This document shows positions 1,736 through 9,554 of a stretch of DNA of 61,600 nucleotides, one piece after another. Under the pieces are notes generated by a model. The model saw only the letters and a list, made by a program, of their open reading frames with translations, ran no database searches and had not been told where the DNA came from. This DNA is from Candidatus Cloacimonadota bacterium. Its GTDB lineage: Bacteria > Cloacimonadota > Cloacimonadia > Cloacimonadales > JAIOQZ01. Made by a program: the position numbers and the translations under genes. The stretch is from the NCBI GenBank assembly GCA_021108395.1, contig JAIOQZ010000061.1, positions 1-61,600 on the forward strand, written 5' to 3'. Position 1 is the stretch's first letter. Every line of letters begins with the position of its first letter.

Positions 1736-2608
1736 ATGCCCCACTACCTCATCACCGGCGCCGGCGGCATGCTGGCACACGCCTTTCGCACCGACCCCGA
1801 CTTCGCCGACCACGTAGCGCTCTCCCACAGCCAGCTCGACATCACCGACGGCCGCGCCTGCCACGATGCCCTGCGCCGGCACAAACCCGCCGTAGTGCTC
1901 AACTGCGCCGCCTTCACGGACGTAACAGCCGCCCAGCAAGACCCCCGTGAAGCCTACCGCGTCAACGCCGACGGCCCCCGCAACCTCGCCGACGCCTGCC
2001 GCGCCGCCGGTTGCAGACTGGTGCACTTCAGCACCGACTACGTCTTCCCCGGCACACACGGTGGCTACCGCGAGACCGACCCCACACTGCCGGTAAACCG
2101 CTACGGCGCCAGCAAGCTGGAAGGCGAGGAACTGGTGCGTGGGCTGCTGCCCGGTGCGCTCATAGTGCGGGTATCGTGGCTGTTCGGCCCCGGCGGGCAC
2201 AACTTCGTCAGCGCTGTCGGTTCGTGGCTGCTCGAACGCGACGAGGTGCGCATCGTCGATGACCAGTTCGGCAAAGTGACCTACACGCGGGACGTAGCGC
2301 AAGCCGTGCTGGGCCTGTTGCGCCGCGAGGCCGCCGGAGTGTTCCACTACGCCAACGCCGGACGTTGCTCGCGCTTCGAGTTCACCGTCGAGATGGCGAG
2401 ACTGCTGAGCGAGAAGCACATGGTCGCCCGCGTGTCGCCCACTAGCGCAGACGCCTTCCCCGACCCCACGCCGCGCCCCACCGACAGCAGCATGAGCACC
2501 CACAAGTACGAGCGCTTCACCGGCTCGCCATCACCATCCTGGCAGAACGCGCTGCAAAGATACTTAAAGACAGGGGCTTTGCCCCTGAACCCCACTCGCC
2601 TTTTGTAA
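1736..2608 (+). CDS. rfbD: dTDP-4-dehydrorhamnose reductase (RmlD/RfbD)
   Basis: A 290-residue short-chain reductase that makes dTDP-L-rhamnose from dTDP-4-dehydro-6-deoxymannose for surface polysaccharide. It has the N-terminal nucleotide-binding motif GAGGML, the substrate-site stretch FSTDYVFPG and the catalytic YxxxK in YGASKLEGE, and its length is normal. The other rml genes are absent, so it is an isolated family member; related sugar reductases cannot be excluded. ATG 1736 puts the Rossmann strand at the N-terminus, though no strong ribosome-binding site precedes it. The last dozen residues are encoded by a palindromic repeat (2571-2616) and are not conserved family sequence. The gene overlaps the 3' end of the convergent YkgJ-like gene by 45 bp. 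Confidence 0.83.
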   Translation: MPHYLITGAGGMLAHAFRTDPDFADHVALSHSQLDITDGRACHDALRRHKPAVVLNCAAFTDVTAAQQDPREAYRVNADGPRNLADACRAAGCRLVHFSTDYVFPGTHGGYRETDPTLPVNRYGASKLEGEELVRGLLPGALIVRVSWLFGPGGHNFVSAVGSWLLERDEVRIVDDQFGKVTYTRDVAQAVLGLLRREAAGVFHYANAGRCSRFEFTVEMARLLSEKHMVARVSPTSADAFPDPTPRPTDSSMSTHKYERFTGSPSPSWQNALQRYLKTGALPLNPTRLL

Positions 2609-3124
2609 AAGGCGAGTGACTTCGAGCCAGGCGGTGAAGATTTCGCGCAGGCGATCTTCGCGCTCGTCGAGACGCGCCAGCGCCTCATAAACGGTCAGCG
2701 CGTTTTCCTGCGCCAGGCAGGTGGCCGAGCGCAACAGCATCAATCGGTCGTCCGGCGTGAACCAGAACGGGTAGAGCCGACAGTAGAACGGTCGCACCGG
2801 TTCCGGCAGGCGGCACCCCGACTGGCCCAGGAAGTGGCAGCCTCCCTCAGCAATGCGTAGGTGCGTACGGCGTCCCTGCGGCATAGTGAGCGCAAAGGCC
2901 GGGTGAATGCGGCGCAGCGCCTCGACAAACCCCGGCGGGGCGATGTCGCTTTGCGTGAATGTATCGATGTTCTCGCCTGTGTGGCTTGCAATCGCGCTAC
3001 ACTCGGTGGGCGTGAGGCCGAACAGCAGCGCTTCTGTGCCGGGCAGCAGCTTGCAGCAGCCTGTGCCTCGCTGATGGCAGCGGGCGCAGATGGTAGGGTC
3101 GGCGGAGCGTGAGTTTCGTTGCAT
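2564..3124 (-). CDS. YkgJ-type cysteine-cluster protein
   Basis: A 186-residue protein with the cysteine pattern of the YkgJ/UPF0153 family, thought to bind iron or zinc. The N-terminal cluster is CARCHQRGTGCCKL and the second is CHFLGQSGCRLP, followed by RPFYCRLYPFWF. The biochemical role of the family is unknown. I used ATG 3124 because the only longer start is a TTG at 3130. The C-terminal tail reads through repeat A and is probably an accident of insertion. It is transcribed toward rfbD, and no promoter is evident. Confidence 0.72.
   Translation of the reverse strand: MQRNSRSADPTICARCHQRGTGCCKLLPGTEALLFGLTPTECSAIASHTGENIDTFTQSDIAPPGFVEALRRIHPAFALTMPQGRRTHLRIAEGGCHFLGQSGCRLPEPVRPFYCRLYPFWFTPDDRLMLLRSATCLAQENALTVYEALARLDEREDRLREIFTAWLEVTRLLQKASGVQGQSPCL
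2571..2616. repeat. Palindromic repeat family A, copy 1
   Basis: Two adjacent hairpins: CAGGGGC-TTT-GCCCCTG, then CTCGCCTT...AAGGCGAG. Related copies lie at 15334-15385 and 35060-35136. Here the element lies inside the overlapping 3' ends of two convergent genes and encodes the C-terminal residues of both. Confidence 0.8.
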
Positions 3125-3167
3125 GAGCAATACATGGCTGATAGGTTAGCGGTTGTCAAGTGCGCAA

Positions 3168-3212
3168 GAAAAAAAAGGTTGCACTCGGGGTGATATTCCC
3201 GATATGCAACCT
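3168..3212 (-). terminator. Intrinsic terminator (minus strand)
   Basis: The 8-bp stem AGGTTGCA (3176-3183) / TGCAACCT (3205-3212) has an inner CGGG/CCCG helix and is followed, on the minus strand, by eight consecutive T residues (3169-3176 complement). It would end transcripts coming from the flagellin side or from the structured RNA block. Confidence 0.8.
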
Positions 3213-3706
3213 GTAAACCTTCATGTTAACCGAACCATTGTTTCGGTATCGACGCGCACTCGCGTCTTTCTGGCACGAGCATCTTTTCCCGGATACGACA
3301 TCCTGGACGATGCGATTGTGGTGAGATTTCATAAAATGGGCGGAGCGTCCCCCGCCCATCTGGTTCGGTTAGCCTAGCACTCCCAATGCCATCCCAGCGA
3401 ACTGGAACGACATTGCCACAGCAGATTTGCCCAAGATGGATATACGTTTGAAATCGTACCGGTGTCGAGCATGGAACTTTTGTTCCTTGCGAGAGACCCT
3501 TCACGCAAGCGCCGGAAGTTCGAGCCAGCATAAACCCCGGGAATGAACCCGGAAAAGTCTGGCTGTGGTATGTGCTTAAGCTCCGACGTTATGCTGTGTG
3601 AGTGCCAAAGGTTCCCTGCCTTTGATCGGTACAATTTGTATGACGCATCGAACGGACCCTCGTGGTCCGGTATCGATTGGACCTTGGGGGTCCTGGTTGG
3701 CATTGG
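3168..3706 (-). ncRNA. Candidate large structured RNA (about 540 nt), family not recognised
   Basis: No convincing gene lies between 3125 and 3826. The block is dense in nested perfect inverted repeats: 3383-3391 with 3698-3706 (9 bp, extendable), 3227-3236 with 3362-3371 (10 bp), 3526-3533 with 3589-3596 (8 bp), 3336-3343 with 3352-3359 (8 bp), 3647-3651 plus 3653-3658 with 3664-3669 plus 3673-3677, 3606-3611 with 3619-3624, 3486-3491 with 3504-3509, 3537-3541 with 3548-3552, and 3251-3256 with 3261-3266. The series ends in an intrinsic terminator that works only on the minus strand, which sets the orientation. A weak -10-like TAGAAT (3716 to 3711) would start a transcript near 3704, at the closing helix. 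No tmRNA, RNase P, SRP or group II intron hallmarks were seen. A long 3' UTR of the flagellin message is the main alternative. Confidence 0.45.
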
Positions 3707-3775
3707 CCGTATTCTACATGCTGACAGCTGACGCTTGATTCTATGCGGGGGCTCCCTTTACAGGCAGATCAGCGT

Positions 3776-3799
3776 TGAGACGTTCCTCAACGAACGTCT
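3776..3799 (-). other. Hairpin just downstream of flagellin 1
   Basis: Perfect 8-bp inverted repeat GAGACGTT / AACGTCTC with an 8-nt loop, about 28 nt past the flagellin stop on the minus strand. There is no T-tract, so it is not a classical terminator; it may stabilise the 3' end of the flagellin mRNA. Confidence 0.5.
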
Positions 3800-3826
3800 C
3801 CTCTTGCTGTCGCGAGCTCAGGGGCT

Positions 3827-4783
3827 TTATCGCATTAGGGTCAACGCCAGTTGCGGCAGAGAATTGGCCTGTGCCAACATACCAACTGCAGCCTGTGTCA
3901 GAATCTGGTTCCGAACGAATTCGGTCATCTCCAGGGCCACGTCCACATCGGAGATGCGGGACTCGGCAGCCTGGACATTCTCAGCCTGAACAGACAGGTT
4001 AGTGATGGTGTTCTCGAGACGGTTTTGCGCTGCACCGAGAGATGCTCGGGCGTTTTCCTTGCGGATCATCGCCGTGTTGATGCTCTCGAGTGCGAGCTGC
4101 GCTGCGTGCTGAGTGGAAACGGCCACATCTGTGGACCCCACACCCAGTGCGCTGGTGCGCATGTCGCCGATACGTATGAAGTAGTAGTCCTCCGCACGAT
4201 CGTTTCCTGTGCCGAAGTGAATTTTGATGCCGCCGATGATCGCGTCACCGGACGCAGTGCCTTCCACTTCCTGCCAACCGCTCGAGTTGGCCCATACACC
4301 TTCAGTTGCGCTCCAGGTATTGCCGGTTGTCCAGCTTCCGCTGTTGCCAGCTATCGAGACGTTGCCGTCCAATAGCTTGACACCGTTGAAATCGGTAGCT
4401 GTGGCGATACGGTCGATTTCGGCCGCCATTGCCGCAAACTCCGAATGAATGATGGCGCGCTGCGTGTCGGTGTAGGTACCTGTCGCAGACTGCTCCGCCA
4501 GTTCTTTCATGCGGATCAACTTTTCGTCGATGACGCTCATGGCGCCTTCGGCGGTCTGGATAAGCGAGATGCCGTTCTGGGCATTGCGAATACCCTGGTT
4601 GAGGGTGGCTACATCTGCGCGCATCTGCTCGCGGATAGCCAATCCGGCAGCGTCGTCCGCCGCTGAATTGATTCGCAGTCCCGTTGACAATCTCTGAACC
4701 GATACAGCCAGCCTGCTATAGGCTGAGGTCAGATTCCTGGCGGTGTTCATCGCCATCAGGTTGTGGTTGATTACGAGTGACAT
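3827..4783 (-). CDS. Flagellin 1
   Basis: A 318-residue flagellin, the subunit of the flagellar filament, exported by the flagellar type III system. The N-terminal D0/D1 helices (INHNLMAMNTARNL; RLSTGLRINSAADDAAGLAI; KELAEQSATGTYTDTQR) and C-terminal D1/D0 helices (NRLENTITNLSVQAENV; MTEFVRNQILTQAAVGMLAQ) are intact. The middle is short (about 80 residues) and holds a conserved IHFGTGNDRAEDYYF segment in place of large D2/D3 domains. ATG 4783 aligns with the other copies and sits better behind AAGGAGG than the ATG at 4786. It is last in a tandem run of four and nearly identical to flagellin 2. Confidence 0.95.
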   Translation of the reverse strand: MSLVINHNLMAMNTARNLTSAYSRLAVSVQRLSTGLRINSAADDAAGLAIREQMRADVATLNQGIRNAQNGISLIQTAEGAMSVIDEKLIRMKELAEQSATGTYTDTQRAIIHSEFAAMAAEIDRIATATDFNGVKLLDGNVSIAGNSGSWTTGNTWSATEGVWANSSGWQEVEGTASGDAIIGGIKIHFGTGNDRAEDYYFIRIGDMRTSALGVGSTDVAVSTQHAAQLALESINTAMIRKENARASLGAAQNRLENTITNLSVQAENVQAAESRISDVDVALEMTEFVRNQILTQAAVGMLAQANSLPQLALTLMR

Positions 4784-4805
4784 CATTCCTCCTTGATTGT
4801 TGGTT

Positions 4806-4842: not shown

Positions 4843-4908
4843 GCTGCGCAAATCTGCTGTGCGCAGGCTAACGCCAAACCATATCAGGAGATAAAAGTCA
4901 CTCGCGGT

Positions 4909-5865
4909 TTACCCCATCAGCCTGAGGGCTAACTGCGGAAGCGAGTTGGCCTGCGCCAACATGCCTACCGCGGCCTGTGTCAGGATCTGGTTCCTCACGA
5001 ATTCAGTCATCTCAAGCGCCACATCGACGTCTGAGATGCGTGATTCCGCAGCCTGGACATTCTCTGCCTGGACGGCCAGGTTGGTGATGGTGTTTTCGAG
5101 GCGGTTCTGGGCTGCACCAAGCGCGGCTCTTGCATTCTCCTTGCGGATCATCGCCGTCGTGATGGTTTCCAGAGCGAGCTGCGCTGCGTGCTGAGTGGAA
5201 ACGGCCACATCTGAGGCCCCCACACCCAAGGCGCTGGTGCGCATGTCGCCGACGCGTATGAAGTAATAGTCCTCCGCACGGTCGTTTCCTGTGCCGAAGT
5301 GAATCTTGATACCGCCGACGATAGAGTCGCCGGACGCGGTACCTTCCACTTCCTGCCAGCCGCTCGTGTTGGTGTAAACACCTTCATCCGCGCTCCAGAC
5401 GTTGGTTGCTCCCCAACTTCCGTTGTTGCCGGCTATAGAGACGTTACCGTCCAATAGCTTGACACCGTTGAAGTCGGTAGCTGTGGCGATACGGTCGATT
5501 TCGGCCGCCATTGCCGCAAACTCCGAATGAATGATGGCGCGCTGCGTGTCGGTGTAGGTACCTGTCGCAGACTGCTCCGCCAGTTCTTTCATGCGGATCA
5601 ACTTTTCGTCGATGACGCTCATGGCGCCTTCGGCGGTCTGGATAAGCGAGATGCCGTTCTGGGCATTGCGAATACCCTGGTTGAGGGTGGCTACATCTGC
5701 GCGCATCTGCTCGCGGATAGCCAATCCGGCAGCGTCGTCCGCCGCTGAATTGATTCGCAGGCCTGTTGATAATCTCTGGACTGATACAGCCAGCCTGCCG
5801 TATGATGCGGTCAGGTTCCTGGCGGTGTTCATTGCCATGAGATTGTGGTTGATTACGAGTGACAT
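4909..5865 (-). CDS. Flagellin 2
   Basis: A 318-residue flagellin with the same architecture as flagellin 1: intact N- and C-terminal D0/D1 helices and a short central region. It differs from flagellin 1 mainly in the central surface-exposed segment. Bases 5474-5760 are identical to 4392-4678 in flagellin 1, including synonymous positions, which indicates recent duplication or gene conversion. ATG 5865 follows AAGGAGG by 6 nt. An intergenic gap of about 125 bp with its own leader elements separates it from flagellin 1, so separate transcription is possible. Confidence 0.95.
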   Translation of the reverse strand: MSLVINHNLMAMNTARNLTASYGRLAVSVQRLSTGLRINSAADDAAGLAIREQMRADVATLNQGIRNAQNGISLIQTAEGAMSVIDEKLIRMKELAEQSATGTYTDTQRAIIHSEFAAMAAEIDRIATATDFNGVKLLDGNVSIAGNNGSWGATNVWSADEGVYTNTSGWQEVEGTASGDSIVGGIKIHFGTGNDRAEDYYFIRVGDMRTSALGVGASDVAVSTQHAAQLALETITTAMIRKENARAALGAAQNRLENTITNLAVQAENVQAAESRISDVDVALEMTEFVRNQILTQAAVGMLAQANSLPQLALRLMG

Positions 5866-5892
5866 CTTCTTCCTCCTTGATTGGTTATACTT

Positions 5893-5924: not shown

Positions 5925-6009
5925 CAGCTCGATATTCAGGCGAACCTGCCTGTGTGTGCTTAGGCTATACCGAACCAATCTTATGGAGATAAAATACACT
6001 CGCTTGTCA

Positions 6010-6969
6010 CTACCCCATTAGTCTTAGGGCAAGCTGCGGCAGCGAGTTGGCCTGAGCCAACATGCCCACCGCGGCCTGAGTGAGTATCTGATTGCGCACG
6101 AACTCGGTCATCTCCACCGCGACATCCACATCGCTGATACGCGATTCGGACGCCTGCAGATTCTCTGCCTGGACGGAGAGATTGGTGATGGTGTTCTCCA
6201 ACCGGTTTTGCGCTGCCCCGAGCGCTGCTCGGGAGTTTTCTTTGCGAATCATCGCCGTCGTGATGTTCTCGAGGGCCATCTGGGCCGCGTGCTGGGTCGA
6301 TACAGCGATATCAGAAGCGCCGACGCCCAGAGCGCTGGTGCGCATGTCGCCGACACGGAAGAAATAGTAGTCTTCCGCACGCTGGTTTCCTGTACCGAAG
6401 TGAATCTTGACGCCGCCTATGATATTCCCGCTGGAATTATGGGCGCCGGTCACTTCCTGCCAGCCGCTGCCGTTGGTCCATACACCTTCATCCGCGCTCC
6501 AGGTGTTATTGGCGTTCCATGCTCCATTGGTGCCGGCAATAGAGATATTGCCGTCCATCAGCTTAACCCCGTTGAAGTCGGTAGCTGTGGCGATACGGTC
6601 GATTTCGGCCGCCATTGCCGCAAACTCCGAGTGAATGATGGCGCGCTGCGCGTCGGTGTATGTACCTGTCGCAGACTGCTCCGCCAGTTCCTTCATACGG
6701 ATCAGCTTCTCGTCGATGACGCCCATGGCGCCTTCGGCGGTCTGAATCATGGAGATGCCGTCCTGGGCATTGCGGATTCCCTGGTTGAGGGTGGCGATGT
6801 CTGCGCGCATCTGCTCGCGTATCGCCAATCCTGCCGCGTCGTCCGCAGCGGAATTGATTCGCATTCCGGTGGACAATCTCATCACAGATGTCGCCAGCCT
6901 GCTATATGAGGCTGTCAGGTTGCGAGCCGTGTTCATCGCCATGAGGTTGTGGTTGATTACGAGTGACAT
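6010..6969 (-). CDS. Flagellin 3
   Basis: A 319-residue flagellin with all conserved terminal helices, starting MSLVINHNL and ending LPQLALRLMG. It is a little more divergent than copies 1 and 2 (for example RLATSVMRLSTGMRIN, and a central HNSSGNIIGG insert of a few residues) but keeps the IHFGTGNQRAEDYYF core. ATG 6969 follows AAGGAGGAACTA. Like the others it lacks D2/D3-sized insertions, so the filament surface is probably thin. Confidence 0.95.
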   Translation of the reverse strand: MSLVINHNLMAMNTARNLTASYSRLATSVMRLSTGMRINSAADDAAGLAIREQMRADIATLNQGIRNAQDGISMIQTAEGAMGVIDEKLIRMKELAEQSATGTYTDAQRAIIHSEFAAMAAEIDRIATATDFNGVKLMDGNISIAGTNGAWNANNTWSADEGVWTNGSGWQEVTGAHNSSGNIIGGVKIHFGTGNQRAEDYYFFRVGDMRTSALGVGASDIAVSTQHAAQMALENITTAMIRKENSRAALGAAQNRLENTITNLSVQAENLQASESRISDVDVAVEMTEFVRNQILTQAAVGMLAQANSLPQLALRLMG

Positions 6970-7220: not shown

Positions 7221-8186
7221 TTAGCCCAGCAGTCTGAGCGCCATGCTTGGAAGCGCGTTGGCCTGGGCCAGTACGGCGATTGCCGCCTGTGCGAGAACCT
7301 GGTTCTTCACGAACTCCGTCATCTCGGTAGCGATATCGACGTCGGAGATCTGTGATTCGGCAACCTGAAGGTTTTCGGCCTGGCCGATGAGGTGCTTGAT
7401 GGTGTTGTCGAGCCGCTCCATCATCGTGCCGACGTGGGCGCGGTTGCGCTCTTTCATGCTGATGGCCGAATCGAGCTGTTCGAGGGCCATCTGTGCCGCG
7501 TGCTGGGTCGAGATCGAGACCTTGTCCGCCGCCAGCACGTTGGGATCGCCAATCGAGCGAAAGAGGCCGTTGGTGCTCATGTCTGCGATGTTGATGAAGT
7601 AGTAATCCTCGGCGCGTTGGTTACCCGTGCCGAAGTGGATTTTTACTCCGAAGTTCGAGACATACTCACCATCAGCGTCCAGGTCGCGGCTGGGATCGAT
7701 GGCGCCGAATCCGGGCTGCACCCATCCACCGACTGTGGACCAGTGATAGGCGTTTGTCGAGAGCTCGCCGTTGATCAGTTTTCGTCCGGCGAACTCGGTG
7801 GATGTGGCAATTCGGTCGATTTCTGAAGCCATGGCCGCGAACTCGGAATGAATGATCTGGCGTTGAGCGTGGGTGTATGTGCCCGTAGCTGCCTGCTCGG
7901 CCAGTTGCTTCATGCGAATCAGCTTCTCGTCAATGACCGCCATCGCGCTTTCTGCTGTCTGCAGCATGTTCATAGCCATTTCGGCATTTCGAACACCCTG
8001 CTGATACACGCCGATATCCGCTCGCATCTCTTCCCTGACCGCCAGACCCGCAGCATCGTCCTTCGCTGAATTAACGCGTAACCCCGTGGACAAACGCTGA
8101 ATCGACTTTCCCATTGCGGAGTAGTGCGACCTGAGGCTGTTTGCAGCGCCCAGGGCGTACAGATTGTGATTGATGTAAAGTGCCAT
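7221..8186 (-). CDS. Flagellin 4 (divergent copy)
   Basis: A 321-residue flagellin, first in the minus-strand series and clearly different from copies 1-3 (start MALYINHNLYALGAANSL, end ALPSMALRLLG). The conserved D0/D1 helices and the IHFGTGNQRAEDYYF core are present; the central segment is distinct (WSTVGGWVQPGFGAIDPSRD). ATG 8186 lies 6 nt after AAGGAGG; an ATG at 8192 abuts that site and is unlikely. A different paralogue may form another zone of the filament, for example near the hook, but position is inference. Its leader has a GGCAAGGAAGCC motif, and a G-rich tract lies further upstream. Confidence 0.94.
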   Translation of the reverse strand: MALYINHNLYALGAANSLRSHYSAMGKSIQRLSTGLRVNSAKDDAAGLAVREEMRADIGVYQQGVRNAEMAMNMLQTAESAMAVIDEKLIRMKQLAEQAATGTYTHAQRQIIHSEFAAMASEIDRIATSTEFAGRKLINGELSTNAYHWSTVGGWVQPGFGAIDPSRDLDADGEYVSNFGVKIHFGTGNQRAEDYYFINIADMSTNGLFRSIGDPNVLAADKVSISTQHAAQMALEQLDSAISMKERNRAHVGTMMERLDNTIKHLIGQAENLQVAESQISDVDIATEMTEFVKNQVLAQAAIAVLAQANALPSMALRLLG

Positions 8187-8223
8187 TGTCATCCTCCTTG
8201 ATGTGTTGGCTTAATTGCCGGTA

Positions 8224-8272
8224 GGCTTCCTTGCCTTACTTGCACATAGTTTCGGTGTAGTTGTCTTACCGA
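8224..8272 (-). promoter_or_regulatory. Flagellin 4 leader: hairpin and GGA motif
   Basis: The message carries the stem TTCGGT/ACCGAA (8272-8250) and then GGCAAGGAAGCC (8235-8224) before the AAGGAGG ribosome-binding site. The motif is identical to that in the flagellin 1 leader although the coding sequences have diverged, which argues for selection on the leader. Confidence 0.4.
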
Positions 8273-8273
8273 A

Positions 8274-8324
8274 GGGGTTTGGGGTTTAGGGGGTTTTGGT
8301 CTTGGGGTCTGTGGGGTCTTGGGG
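8274..8324 (+). other. G-quadruplex-capable tract
   Basis: Six runs of four or five G (8274-8277, 8281-8284, 8289-8293, 8304-8307, 8313-8316, 8321-8324) lie within 51 nt of the plus strand, separated by short T-rich spacers. Four such runs suffice for a stable intramolecular quadruplex. The tract lies between the FlgN-like gene and flagellin 4, on the template strand for both. Confidence 0.75.
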
Positions 8325-8338
8325 TCGAGATGTTGCGG

Positions 8339-9175
8339 TTATTTGGTCGTGTCAACGAAGCGGGATTGGCGTAGCGCATTGGCGTATCGAGAGATAGCCT
8401 TTGCGCCGGCATTGCGCTTCCCGAGCTCTGCTTTCACTTCTTCCTTCTGGTTCCGAAGTTCCACACTATTTTGGTTTTCCCTGTCAAGGATCCGATTCAT
8501 CACGCTATGTATATCGGAGAGAATGCGGTTTGCTTTAGCCCTTTCTGCATCCTCTTCCGACCGGCCCCTGAAGAGTTCGATATCCAGCATTTCCTGTAAG
8601 ACATGCGCCCGCTCGAGAAGATCCTTCTTGGTGTTCATCAATTGGTGTAGGGTTGGCAGGTCGCCCTTGCCGATCATCTCGGTTTCCTGCTCGGTGTTGG
8701 AATAGTATTGGCGGTATAGCTCGCGCAGTTCCGTCAGCCCCTGCATCTGCCGGTCCAGCTCCAACTTCTCGGGCGAGGCCGTGCGGTGGGTCTCTGCCCA
8801 GTCCAGATTGGCAATCTTCTGCTCGAGTTCGGCAATGCGGCCTTTGATGCGAAGCAAATGGTTATCGCGAGAACGCCGTTCCTTGCGCTCTGAGGGCAAA
8901 TCGGGGACAGCGTCCTCTTCCTGTAGCGAAGTGAACAGCGACAGCTCGAGATTCTTTTGCTCCATAAGCAAACGCCCCAGTTCGATTTGATAGTGCCACC
9001 ACTGCGGAGTCGCTTCTGCTGCCGGTTCCTGCCGTGGTTGCCCGTCCTGCTGCTCGTGATCGTCTCGGCGCTGTTGTTCGCCATTATGCCGCGGCTGCGG
9101 CGACTCTCGCCGCGAGGCGATACGAATTCGCTGCACCTTGGGAATCGCAGTGAGTATATGGTTGTCTTCGGCCAT
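8339..9175 (-). CDS. Coiled-coil protein, possible FlgN-type flagellar chaperone
   Basis: A 278-residue protein. The first 35 residues contain several basic residues, residues 35-60 are a charged low-complexity stretch rich in Q, R and D, and the rest is predominantly helical with heptad-like leucines (QIELGRLLMEQKNLELSL; HQLMNTKKDLLERAHVLQEM). FlgN chaperones for hook-associated proteins share this helical character, and the gene sits directly upstream of the flagellins on the same strand, so a flagellar chaperone role is plausible but not proven. ATG 9175 follows GGAGGAAAGC well; an upstream start at 9271 would add 32 unlikely residues. Confidence 0.5.
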   Translation of the reverse strand: MAEDNHILTAIPKVQRIRIASRRESPQPRHNGEQQRRDDHEQQDGQPRQEPAAEATPQWWHYQIELGRLLMEQKNLELSLFTSLQEEDAVPDLPSERKERRSRDNHLLRIKGRIAELEQKIANLDWAETHRTASPEKLELDRQMQGLTELRELYRQYYSNTEQETEMIGKGDLPTLHQLMNTKKDLLERAHVLQEMLDIELFRGRSEEDAERAKANRILSDIHSVMNRILDRENQNSVELRNQKEEVKAELGKRNAGAKAISRYANALRQSRFVDTTK

Positions 9176-9554
9176 GCTTTCCTCCGTACGCACTATCGAC
9201 ACGGTTGACCCTGGACTGAAGCCTAATATTGGCAGATGGTTGTCAGACGCCGCCCTGCCCGTTGTGAGCACATCTTTATGTGCATATCCAAGATGCCACC
9301 GGCGCCGAGATTGGGCAAGTTATTTTCCGGAGGGCAGCAACGGGCGAACATCTATATCTCTATGAAATGCTTACAGTTGGACTCTATGTGCCCTGGTTTC
9401 TCATCTATGCAATGGAGTTACTATAGTCTTTGCAGAAAGGGAATTAAGAAAAAAAAGTGGCATCTGGCAACAAATTCTCTTGACAGAAATACCTCCCGAA
9501 TCCCTTGTCTATAATTGAGAGTATGTTGCGCAATCAGCCACAAGGGGTTCAGTG
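9176..9554. other. Intergenic region between divergent flagellar and pilus genes
   Basis: About 380 bp without a gene, so it must carry outward promoters for both sides. On the plus strand a perfect TATAAT lies at 9510-9515, 39 bp before the pilus ATPase start, and AAGGGG before the start can serve as ribosome-binding site. A TTGACA at 9480-9485 is 24 bp from the TATAAT, too far to pair with it as a standard -35. No clear flagellar sigma-28 or sigma-54 box was seen on the minus strand. Confidence 0.4.

What the first reader, a model, noticed from the sequence alone, without database searches (positions are those of the whole stretch)
3168..3706. Unrecognised roughly 540-nt structured RNA candidate downstream of the flagellins
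Seen: a gene-free block has a 9-bp long-range helix (3383-3391/3698-3706) enclosing further stems, and a second 10-bp helix (3227-3236/3362-3371) enclosing at least three hairpins. It ends in a textbook terminator that works only on the minus strand. Known large bacterial RNAs of this size (OLE, ROOL, GOLLD, group II introns) are rare, and I see no hallmark of any, nor of tmRNA or RNase P. Inference: a new ornate RNA, or an unusually structured flagellin 3' UTR.
Basis: partly seen in the sequence, partly recalled or inferred. Interest (0 to 1): 0.8.

Follow-up and report, generated by a model that had tools for sequence, protein, structure and literature searches.

The report
Flagellin-pairing small RNA in Cloacimonadota
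Behind the tandem flagellin genes of several uncultured Cloacimonadota bacteria sits a conserved, apparently undescribed ~105-nucleotide RNA element whose two best-kept stretches are complementary to the untranslated leaders of those same flagellin genes, so it is probably a small regulatory RNA that controls how much flagellum protein is made.

Summary
The block is gene-free, folds far better than shuffled controls and ends in a minus-strand terminator, but it is not a 540-nt ornate RNA. Only a ~105-nt core (3335-3438, minus) is conserved. It occurs in 8 of 107 Cloacimonadota-order genomes, all 8 among the 11 with flagellin genes. It always follows the last flagellin of a tandem array, on the same strand, with a terminator 36-125 nt downstream. 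No Rfam family matches.

The core has two supported hairpins (P2, P3; P3 with compensatory changes) and two nearly invariant segments flanking P2. Those segments are reverse-complementary, in the right order, to a two-part motif in the 5' leaders of the distal flagellin genes. Among 3,076 windows of this contig, those leaders are the best predicted partners after the locus's own antisense. Each RNA pairs better with its own genome's leaders than with swapped ones (p=0.0001). Flagellated relatives checked without the RNA lack the motif.

The core also resembles the 3' end of a flagellin coding sequence, suggesting a collapsed flagellin gene. Best reading: a new, Hfq-independent, base-pairing sRNA family regulating distal flagellin mRNAs through a three-way-junction duplex. 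Pairing is strongly supported computationally; transcription and direction of regulation are inferred.

The parts
3335..3438 (-). Conserved RNA core (about 105 nt)
   Evidence: CM R1 115.7 bits; homologues in 7 other Cloacimonadota genomes, 91-112 bits
3417..3434 (-). Pairing segment 5' (UUGGGCAAAUCUGCUGUG), nearly invariant
   Evidence: 88% mean identity; complementary to the 3' half of the leader motif
3384..3415 (-). Hairpin P2 (basal stem 3409-3415 / 3384-3390 plus apical stem)
   Evidence: 98.2% of basal cells paired; apical sequence only 30% identical yet predicted to pair in every genome
3362..3380 (-). Pairing segment 3' (GUGCUAGGCUAACCGAACC), nearly invariant
   Evidence: 97% identity over alignment columns 70-86; complementary to the 5' half of the leader motif
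3335..3360 (-). Hairpin P3 (GAUGGGCGG...CCGCCCAUU)
   Evidence: 100% of cells paired, 4 of 9 pairs with compensatory double changes
3169..3211 (-). Intrinsic terminator (hairpin 3177-3211 plus U8)
   Evidence: -19.6 kcal/mol hairpin; an equivalent terminator follows the core in all 8 genomes
4844..4880 (-). Target motif in the leader of flagellin 3827-4786 (-94 to -57 from ATG)
   Evidence: two complementary blocks; net RNA-RNA energy -24.4 kcal/mol; second-ranked partner region in the window scan apart from self-antisense
5936..5976 (-). Target motif in the leader of flagellin 4909-5865 (-111 to -70 from ATG)
   Evidence: two complementary blocks; net -29.6 kcal/mol; top-ranked partner apart from self-antisense
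5879..5886 (-). AACCAAUC strand abutting the Shine-Dalgarno; pairs with GAUUGGUU at 5973-5980, which overlaps the target motif
   Evidence: sequence; conserved in most motif leaders
3827..4786 (-). Last flagellin gene of the array (target mRNA)
   Evidence: Pfam Flagellin_N/C
4909..5865 (-). Third flagellin gene (target mRNA)
   Evidence: 93% identical to flagellin 3827-4786
6010..6969 (-). Second flagellin gene (weak or partial target motif in its leader)
7221..8192 (-). First flagellin gene (leader without the motif)
   Evidence: Pfam

Best explanation
The locus encodes a small regulatory RNA, transcribed on the minus strand either from its own promoter or as the processed 3' end of the last flagellin transcript, and ended by the terminator at 3169-3211. 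Its two exposed segments on either side of hairpin P2 pair over about 30-35 bp with a two-part motif 50-115 nt upstream of the start codons of the distal (major) flagellin genes. The duplex is a three-way junction: P2 protrudes where the two halves of the target abut, and P3 stacks at the end. Pairing displaces the leader's own closing stem (GAUUGGUU/AACCAAUC), which abuts the Shine-Dalgarno sequence, and so changes translation or stability of the flagellin mRNA. I lean slightly to activation by strand displacement (about 55:45 over RNase III-type repression). The RNA probably arose from a collapsed flagellin gene at the end of the array. Shown computationally: conservation, P2/P3, the terminators, the complementarity and its co-variation. 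Inferred: transcription, pairing in the cell, and direction of regulation.
For: Phylogenetic profile: 8 of 107 order genomes carry it, all among the 11 with flagellin. It always lies directly after the last flagellin, same strand, with a terminator downstream in all 8. P2+P3: 99.2% of cells paired and covariation score 0.328 against 0.240 shuffled (1/500) and <=0.114 slid. The 17-nt 3' segment is 97% identical, while third codon positions of neighbouring flagellin CDS ends are 45%. Two-block complementarity in the right order in the leaders of distal flagellins of all 8 genomes, not in first-flagellin leaders. RNAcofold net -20 to -32 kcal/mol against -2 to -13 for control leaders, with the three-way junction predicted de novo. 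The two leaders are the best partners among 3,076 windows after the locus's own antisense. Own-genome pairing beats swapped RNAs: p=0.0001, and 0.0008 without the window genome. Flagellated G016 and G012 lack both RNA and motif. No Hfq found, consistent with long Hfq-independent pairing.
Against: No expression data exist here; promoters upstream of the core are not better than chance. Blocking the motif in silico does not change Shine-Dalgarno accessibility consistently, so the regulatory outcome is not predicted. Only eight homologues are available, and leaders within a genome are paralogues. The pairing in L016 and part of L013/L014 is weaker. In L013/L015 the core begins 55 nt after the flagellin stop, so there it may simply be a 3' UTR. 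The RNA-leader co-variation test does not correct for phylogeny.
Confidence: 0.74

Rival explanations
1. It is a cis-acting 3' UTR element of the flagellin array transcript: the segments pair within the same polycistronic or last-gene mRNA to protect or cyclise it, with no free sRNA.
For: Always the same strand directly behind the last flagellin, 55-611 nt from its stop, followed by a terminator. In L013/L015 the gap is only 55 nt. Significant promoters were not found.
Against: Targets are leaders of several genes of the array, not only of the last one. L014 has a terminator-like hairpin between flagellins and a TTGACA-N17-TAAATT sequence before the core, arguing for separate transcripts.
Confidence: 0.17
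2. A flagellin gene fossil without function: the core is the decaying 3' end of a collapsed flagellin copy.
For: The core reads ILAKSAVAM...MALRVLG* and resembles flagellin 3' ends (summed score 315 against 202 +/- 14 shuffled, 0 of 60). Non-self CM hits fall on real flagellin 3' ends. Flagellin start fossils lie upstream in L010 and L016.
Against: The core is far better conserved across families than flanks or flagellin third codon positions. The frame is broken while stems keep compensatory changes and the RNA tracks its leaders. A fossil explains the origin, not the conservation.
Confidence: 0.03
3. A protein-binding or CsrA-titrating RNA: P3 (loop GGGACGCU) or P2 sequesters CsrA or another regulator, and the leader complementarity is secondary.
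For: CsrA and FliW are encoded in the flagellated genomes (FliW not found in the 81%-complete G001). Flagellin leaders carry GGCAAGGAAGCC hairpins and a CAAGGAGG Shine-Dalgarno, like CsrA sites of C. jejuni flaA (PMC4894983).
Against: No GGA in the P3 loop of L014 or L016, and no ANGGA hexaloop conserved in the core. It does not explain the invariant unpaired segments.
Confidence: 0.03
4. A DNA-level element (recombination or integration site of the flagellin array) whose inverted repeats only look like RNA stems.
For: Both strands fold equally well; tandem paralogous arrays recombine.
Against: Single copy per genome; constant strand and terminator; complementarity to leaders rather than identity to other sites.
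Confidence: 0.03

Closest known systems
FliX sRNA of Escherichia coli (from the fliC 3' UTR; eLife 2023, PMC10578931)
   Same: Encoded directly behind flagellin and acts on flagellin mRNA by base pairing.
   Different: FliX is Hfq-bound, pairs inside coding sequences of fliC and the S10 operon and has REP sequence. Here no Hfq was found, pairing is with 5' leaders over about 30 bp in two blocks, and there is no match in Rfam.
CJnc230 (FlmE) and CJnc170 (FlmR) sRNAs of Campylobacter jejuni (PMC11187230)
   Same: Flagellar sRNAs; CJnc230 is encoded behind a flagellar structural gene and cut out of its mRNA.
   Different: CJnc230 pairs with ribosome-binding sites of flgM and Cj1387c, not with flagellin leaders; it is encoded behind flgE, not behind a flagellin array.
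CsrA-FliW-flagellin leader circuit (C. jejuni flaA, PMC4894983)
   Same: Flagellin leader with GGA hairpins and a Shine-Dalgarno that may be CsrA sites; CsrA and FliW genes present.
   Different: The known circuit has no pairing RNA; here an RNA complementary to the leader is added.
OLE, ROOL, GOLLD and similar large bacterial ncRNAs
   Same: Structured non-coding RNA.
   Different: The conserved element is about 105 nt; no Rfam hit.

Membership tests
Trans-acting base-pairing sRNA | Conserved unpaired segment complementary to target mRNAs | tested here: met
Trans-acting base-pairing sRNA | sRNA and target co-vary between species | tested here: met
   permutation p=0.0001; 0.0008 without the window genome; not corrected for phylogeny
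Trans-acting base-pairing sRNA | Intrinsic terminator at the 3' end | tested here: met
   all 8 genomes
Trans-acting base-pairing sRNA | Own promoter or processed discrete transcript | tested here: inconclusive
   promoter scan not above chance; no RNA-seq
Trans-acting base-pairing sRNA | Changes target expression in trans | not testable with these tools
   needs an experiment
FliX-type flagellin 3' UTR sRNA | Encoded in the 3' region of the flagellin gene | tested here: met
FliX-type flagellin 3' UTR sRNA | Hfq partner | tested here: not met
   no Hfq in 8 genomes
FliX-type flagellin 3' UTR sRNA | Pairs inside coding sequences | tested here: not met
   best partners are leaders
Any Rfam 15 family (incl. 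OLE, ROOL, GOLLD, group II introns, RNase P) | Covariance-model match | tested here: not met
   none at gathering score over the window, none at E<=10 for 2600-4000
CsrB/RsmZ-type CsrA sponge | Repeated conserved ANGGA loops | tested here: not met
   no conserved ANGGA loop in the 8-sequence alignment

The most novel reading that the evidence does not exclude
A flagellin gene at the end of the array collapsed into a non-coding RNA that kept the shape of the gene's 3' end and became a trans-acting, Hfq-independent regulator of its former paralogues, pairing with their leaders as a conserved three-way junction: an sRNA born from a pseudogene of its own target, kept across several families of a candidate phylum.
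Probability: 0.5. Interest if true: 0.75.

Novelty: new variant of a known kind. Interest (0 to 1): 0.62.

Why it matters
Pairing RNAs are hard to identify outside model bacteria, and none was found described for Cloacimonadota in the papers searched. Here an RNA family, its targets and their co-variation can be read from genomes alone. It adds an RNA layer to flagellin control beside CsrA-FliW, in organisms without detectable Hfq, and offers a traceable case of an sRNA probably derived from a copy of the gene family it regulates.

Tried and rejected
BLASTN against phages and plasmids: no match. The BLAST hit in G104 (L017) lies outside the core with no flagellin nearby. A collection-wide 20-nt pattern scan gave 13 hits: 7 are the known Cloacimonadota loci; the 6 others and 2 viral hits score at most 20 bits and are judged chance. 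A protein-coding reading was considered because the core can be read as ILAKSAVAM...MALRVLG* or as ...SARLTEPDGRGTLRP: it was rejected because frames are not kept, stops and indels intervene and third positions are not the variable ones. A basal stem P1 (CUUGGC/GCUAGG or UUGGCU/GGCUAA) was left undecided: two registers fit and neither has covariation. Shine-Dalgarno accessibility did not give a direction of regulation. The leader motif pattern genome-wide shows only chance hits outside flagellin leaders.

Full report
What was checked. The block 3168-3706 is gene-free and folds much better than chance on both strands (z -7.2 minus, -7.4 plus). The minus strand ends in a hairpin followed by eight U (3169-3211). 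No Rfam family matches, even at permissive thresholds. One is conserved nowhere else, and the other competes with a hairpin (P2) that is conserved. The flanks of the core also fold well (z -4.2 and -3.8) but have no detectable homologues, so the unit under selection is about 105 nt (3335-3438, minus).

Homologues. BLASTN in 148 relatives found seven further copies in as many genomes. A covariance model built from the eight copies finds the same eight in the 107 held genomes of the order (91-116 bits) and nothing comparable in the 125 of the phylum. The best extra hits are 25 bits: one lies on a flagellin 3' end, one in a class member was not followed up. Public records name the organisms as Candidatus Cloacimonadota. 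Eleven of the 107 genomes encode a flagellin, and all eight with the RNA are among them. In every case the core lies 55-611 nt behind the stop of the last flagellin gene of a tandem array, on the same strand, and a terminator follows within 36-125 nt.

Structure. Hairpins P2 and P3 are paired in 99.2% of cells. The covariation score is 0.328, against 0.240 in shuffles (1/500) and at most 0.114 when slid. In P3, 4 of 9 pairs show double compensatory changes. The apical part of P2 has only 30% identity but is predicted to pair in every genome. By contrast the segments around P2 are nearly invariant: 88% for the 5' segment and 97% for the last 17 nt of the 3' segment, while third codon positions of the adjacent flagellin ends are 45% identical. 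A basal stem P1 is possible in two registers and is not supported by covariation.

Targets. The invariant segments are reverse-complementary to a motif GGUUYGGUUAGCCUA...CACAGCAGAUUUgCC in the leaders of the distal flagellins. In each such leader the two halves occur in the order required, between -117 and -48 from the start codon, with most pairing scores above 100 shuffles; first-flagellin leaders do not show this. Cofolding predicts a three-way junction with P2 and P3 intact. Net energies are -20 to -32 kcal/mol, against -2 to -13 for control leaders. In an unbiased scan of 3,076 windows of this contig, the two leaders (4844-4880 and 5936-5976) rank first after the locus's own antisense. 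RNAs pair best with the leaders of their own genome (all permutations: p=0.0001; without the window genome 0.0008). Examples: RNA GCAAAU with leader AUUUGC in the window; RNA GGCUAAAU with leader GUUAGCC in L016; RNA CUACUGU with leader ACAGUAGA in L011. Flagellated G016 and G012 lack both RNA and motif, and the motif pattern is otherwise at chance level across the order.

Leader. Most motif leaders also carry a stem GAUUGGUU/AACCAAUC whose 3' strand abuts the Shine-Dalgarno AAGGAGG. The RNA's AACCGAACC mimics that strand, so pairing should displace it. Thermodynamic estimates of Shine-Dalgarno accessibility do not move consistently, so the direction of regulation is inference. I lean slightly to activation, because a stem flush with the ribosome site would be opened; cleavage of the long duplex is the main alternative. 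CsrA genes are present in the RNA-bearing genomes and FliW in seven of the eight (G001 is 81% complete), and Hfq is not detected in any of the eight.

Origin. Read as codons the core resembles the 3' end of a flagellin gene (ILAKSAVAM...MALRVLG*). The summed similarity to 27 flagellin 3' ends is 315, against 202 +/- 14 for shuffles, and weak model hits fall exactly on flagellin 3' ends. Flagellin start fossils stand about 80-90 nt upstream of the core in L010 and L016. The frame is not kept, so this is ancestry and not coding. A collapsed last flagellin gene is the simplest origin.

Known relatives. FliX of E. coli comes from the fliC 3' UTR and pairs inside coding sequences with Hfq (PMC10578931). 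CJnc230 of C. jejuni is cut from flgE mRNA and acts on flgM (PMC11187230). The CsrA-FliW-flaA leader circuit has no pairing RNA (PMC4894983). The present element works like a flagellar base-pairing sRNA but belongs to none of these families. Searches for papers on Cloacimonadota flagella or non-coding RNA found nothing that describes it.

Limits. Eight sequences, no expression data, paralogous leaders, and a co-variation test without phylogenetic correction. Existence of the conserved structured element is near certain, pairing with flagellin leaders is likely (about 0.85), and trans action and its sign are open.

Noticed in passing
window leader of flagellin 7221-8192 (8193-8300), and first-flagellin leaders of L010, L011, L014, L016: Leaders carry GGCAAGGAAGCC-type GGA hairpins plus a CAAGGAGG Shine-Dalgarno, as expected for CsrA sites; CsrA and FliW are encoded in these genomes and Hfq was not found.
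   Followed up: partly
L016, about 20-610 nt downstream of its last flagellin: Flagellin pseudogene pieces (INHDLMAMNTGR and PQLA*RLIG*), with a leader-like motif before them, lie between the last flagellin and the RNA core.
   Followed up: partly
L013 and L015, just upstream of and across the core: A small open reading frame with a possible ribosome-binding site overlaps the core (MQYKTVYQKQLKILAKSAVAMSRQMPKDIERC and a close relative); not conserved in other genomes.
   Followed up: no
3227-3236 (minus): This genome alone has a second UGGUUCGGUU in the RNA's 3' part that could mask the core's AACCGAACCA pairing segment.
   Followed up: no
3445-3706 (minus): The stretch between last flagellin and core is strongly structured (z -4.2) but has no homologues detected.
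   Followed up: partly
8339-9271: A conserved gene without a Pfam match precedes the flagellin array here and in L010, L011, L013, L014 and L016; possibly a flagellar accessory protein.
   Followed up: no
252-1733: Fic/DOC family protein gene near the window start.
   Followed up: no
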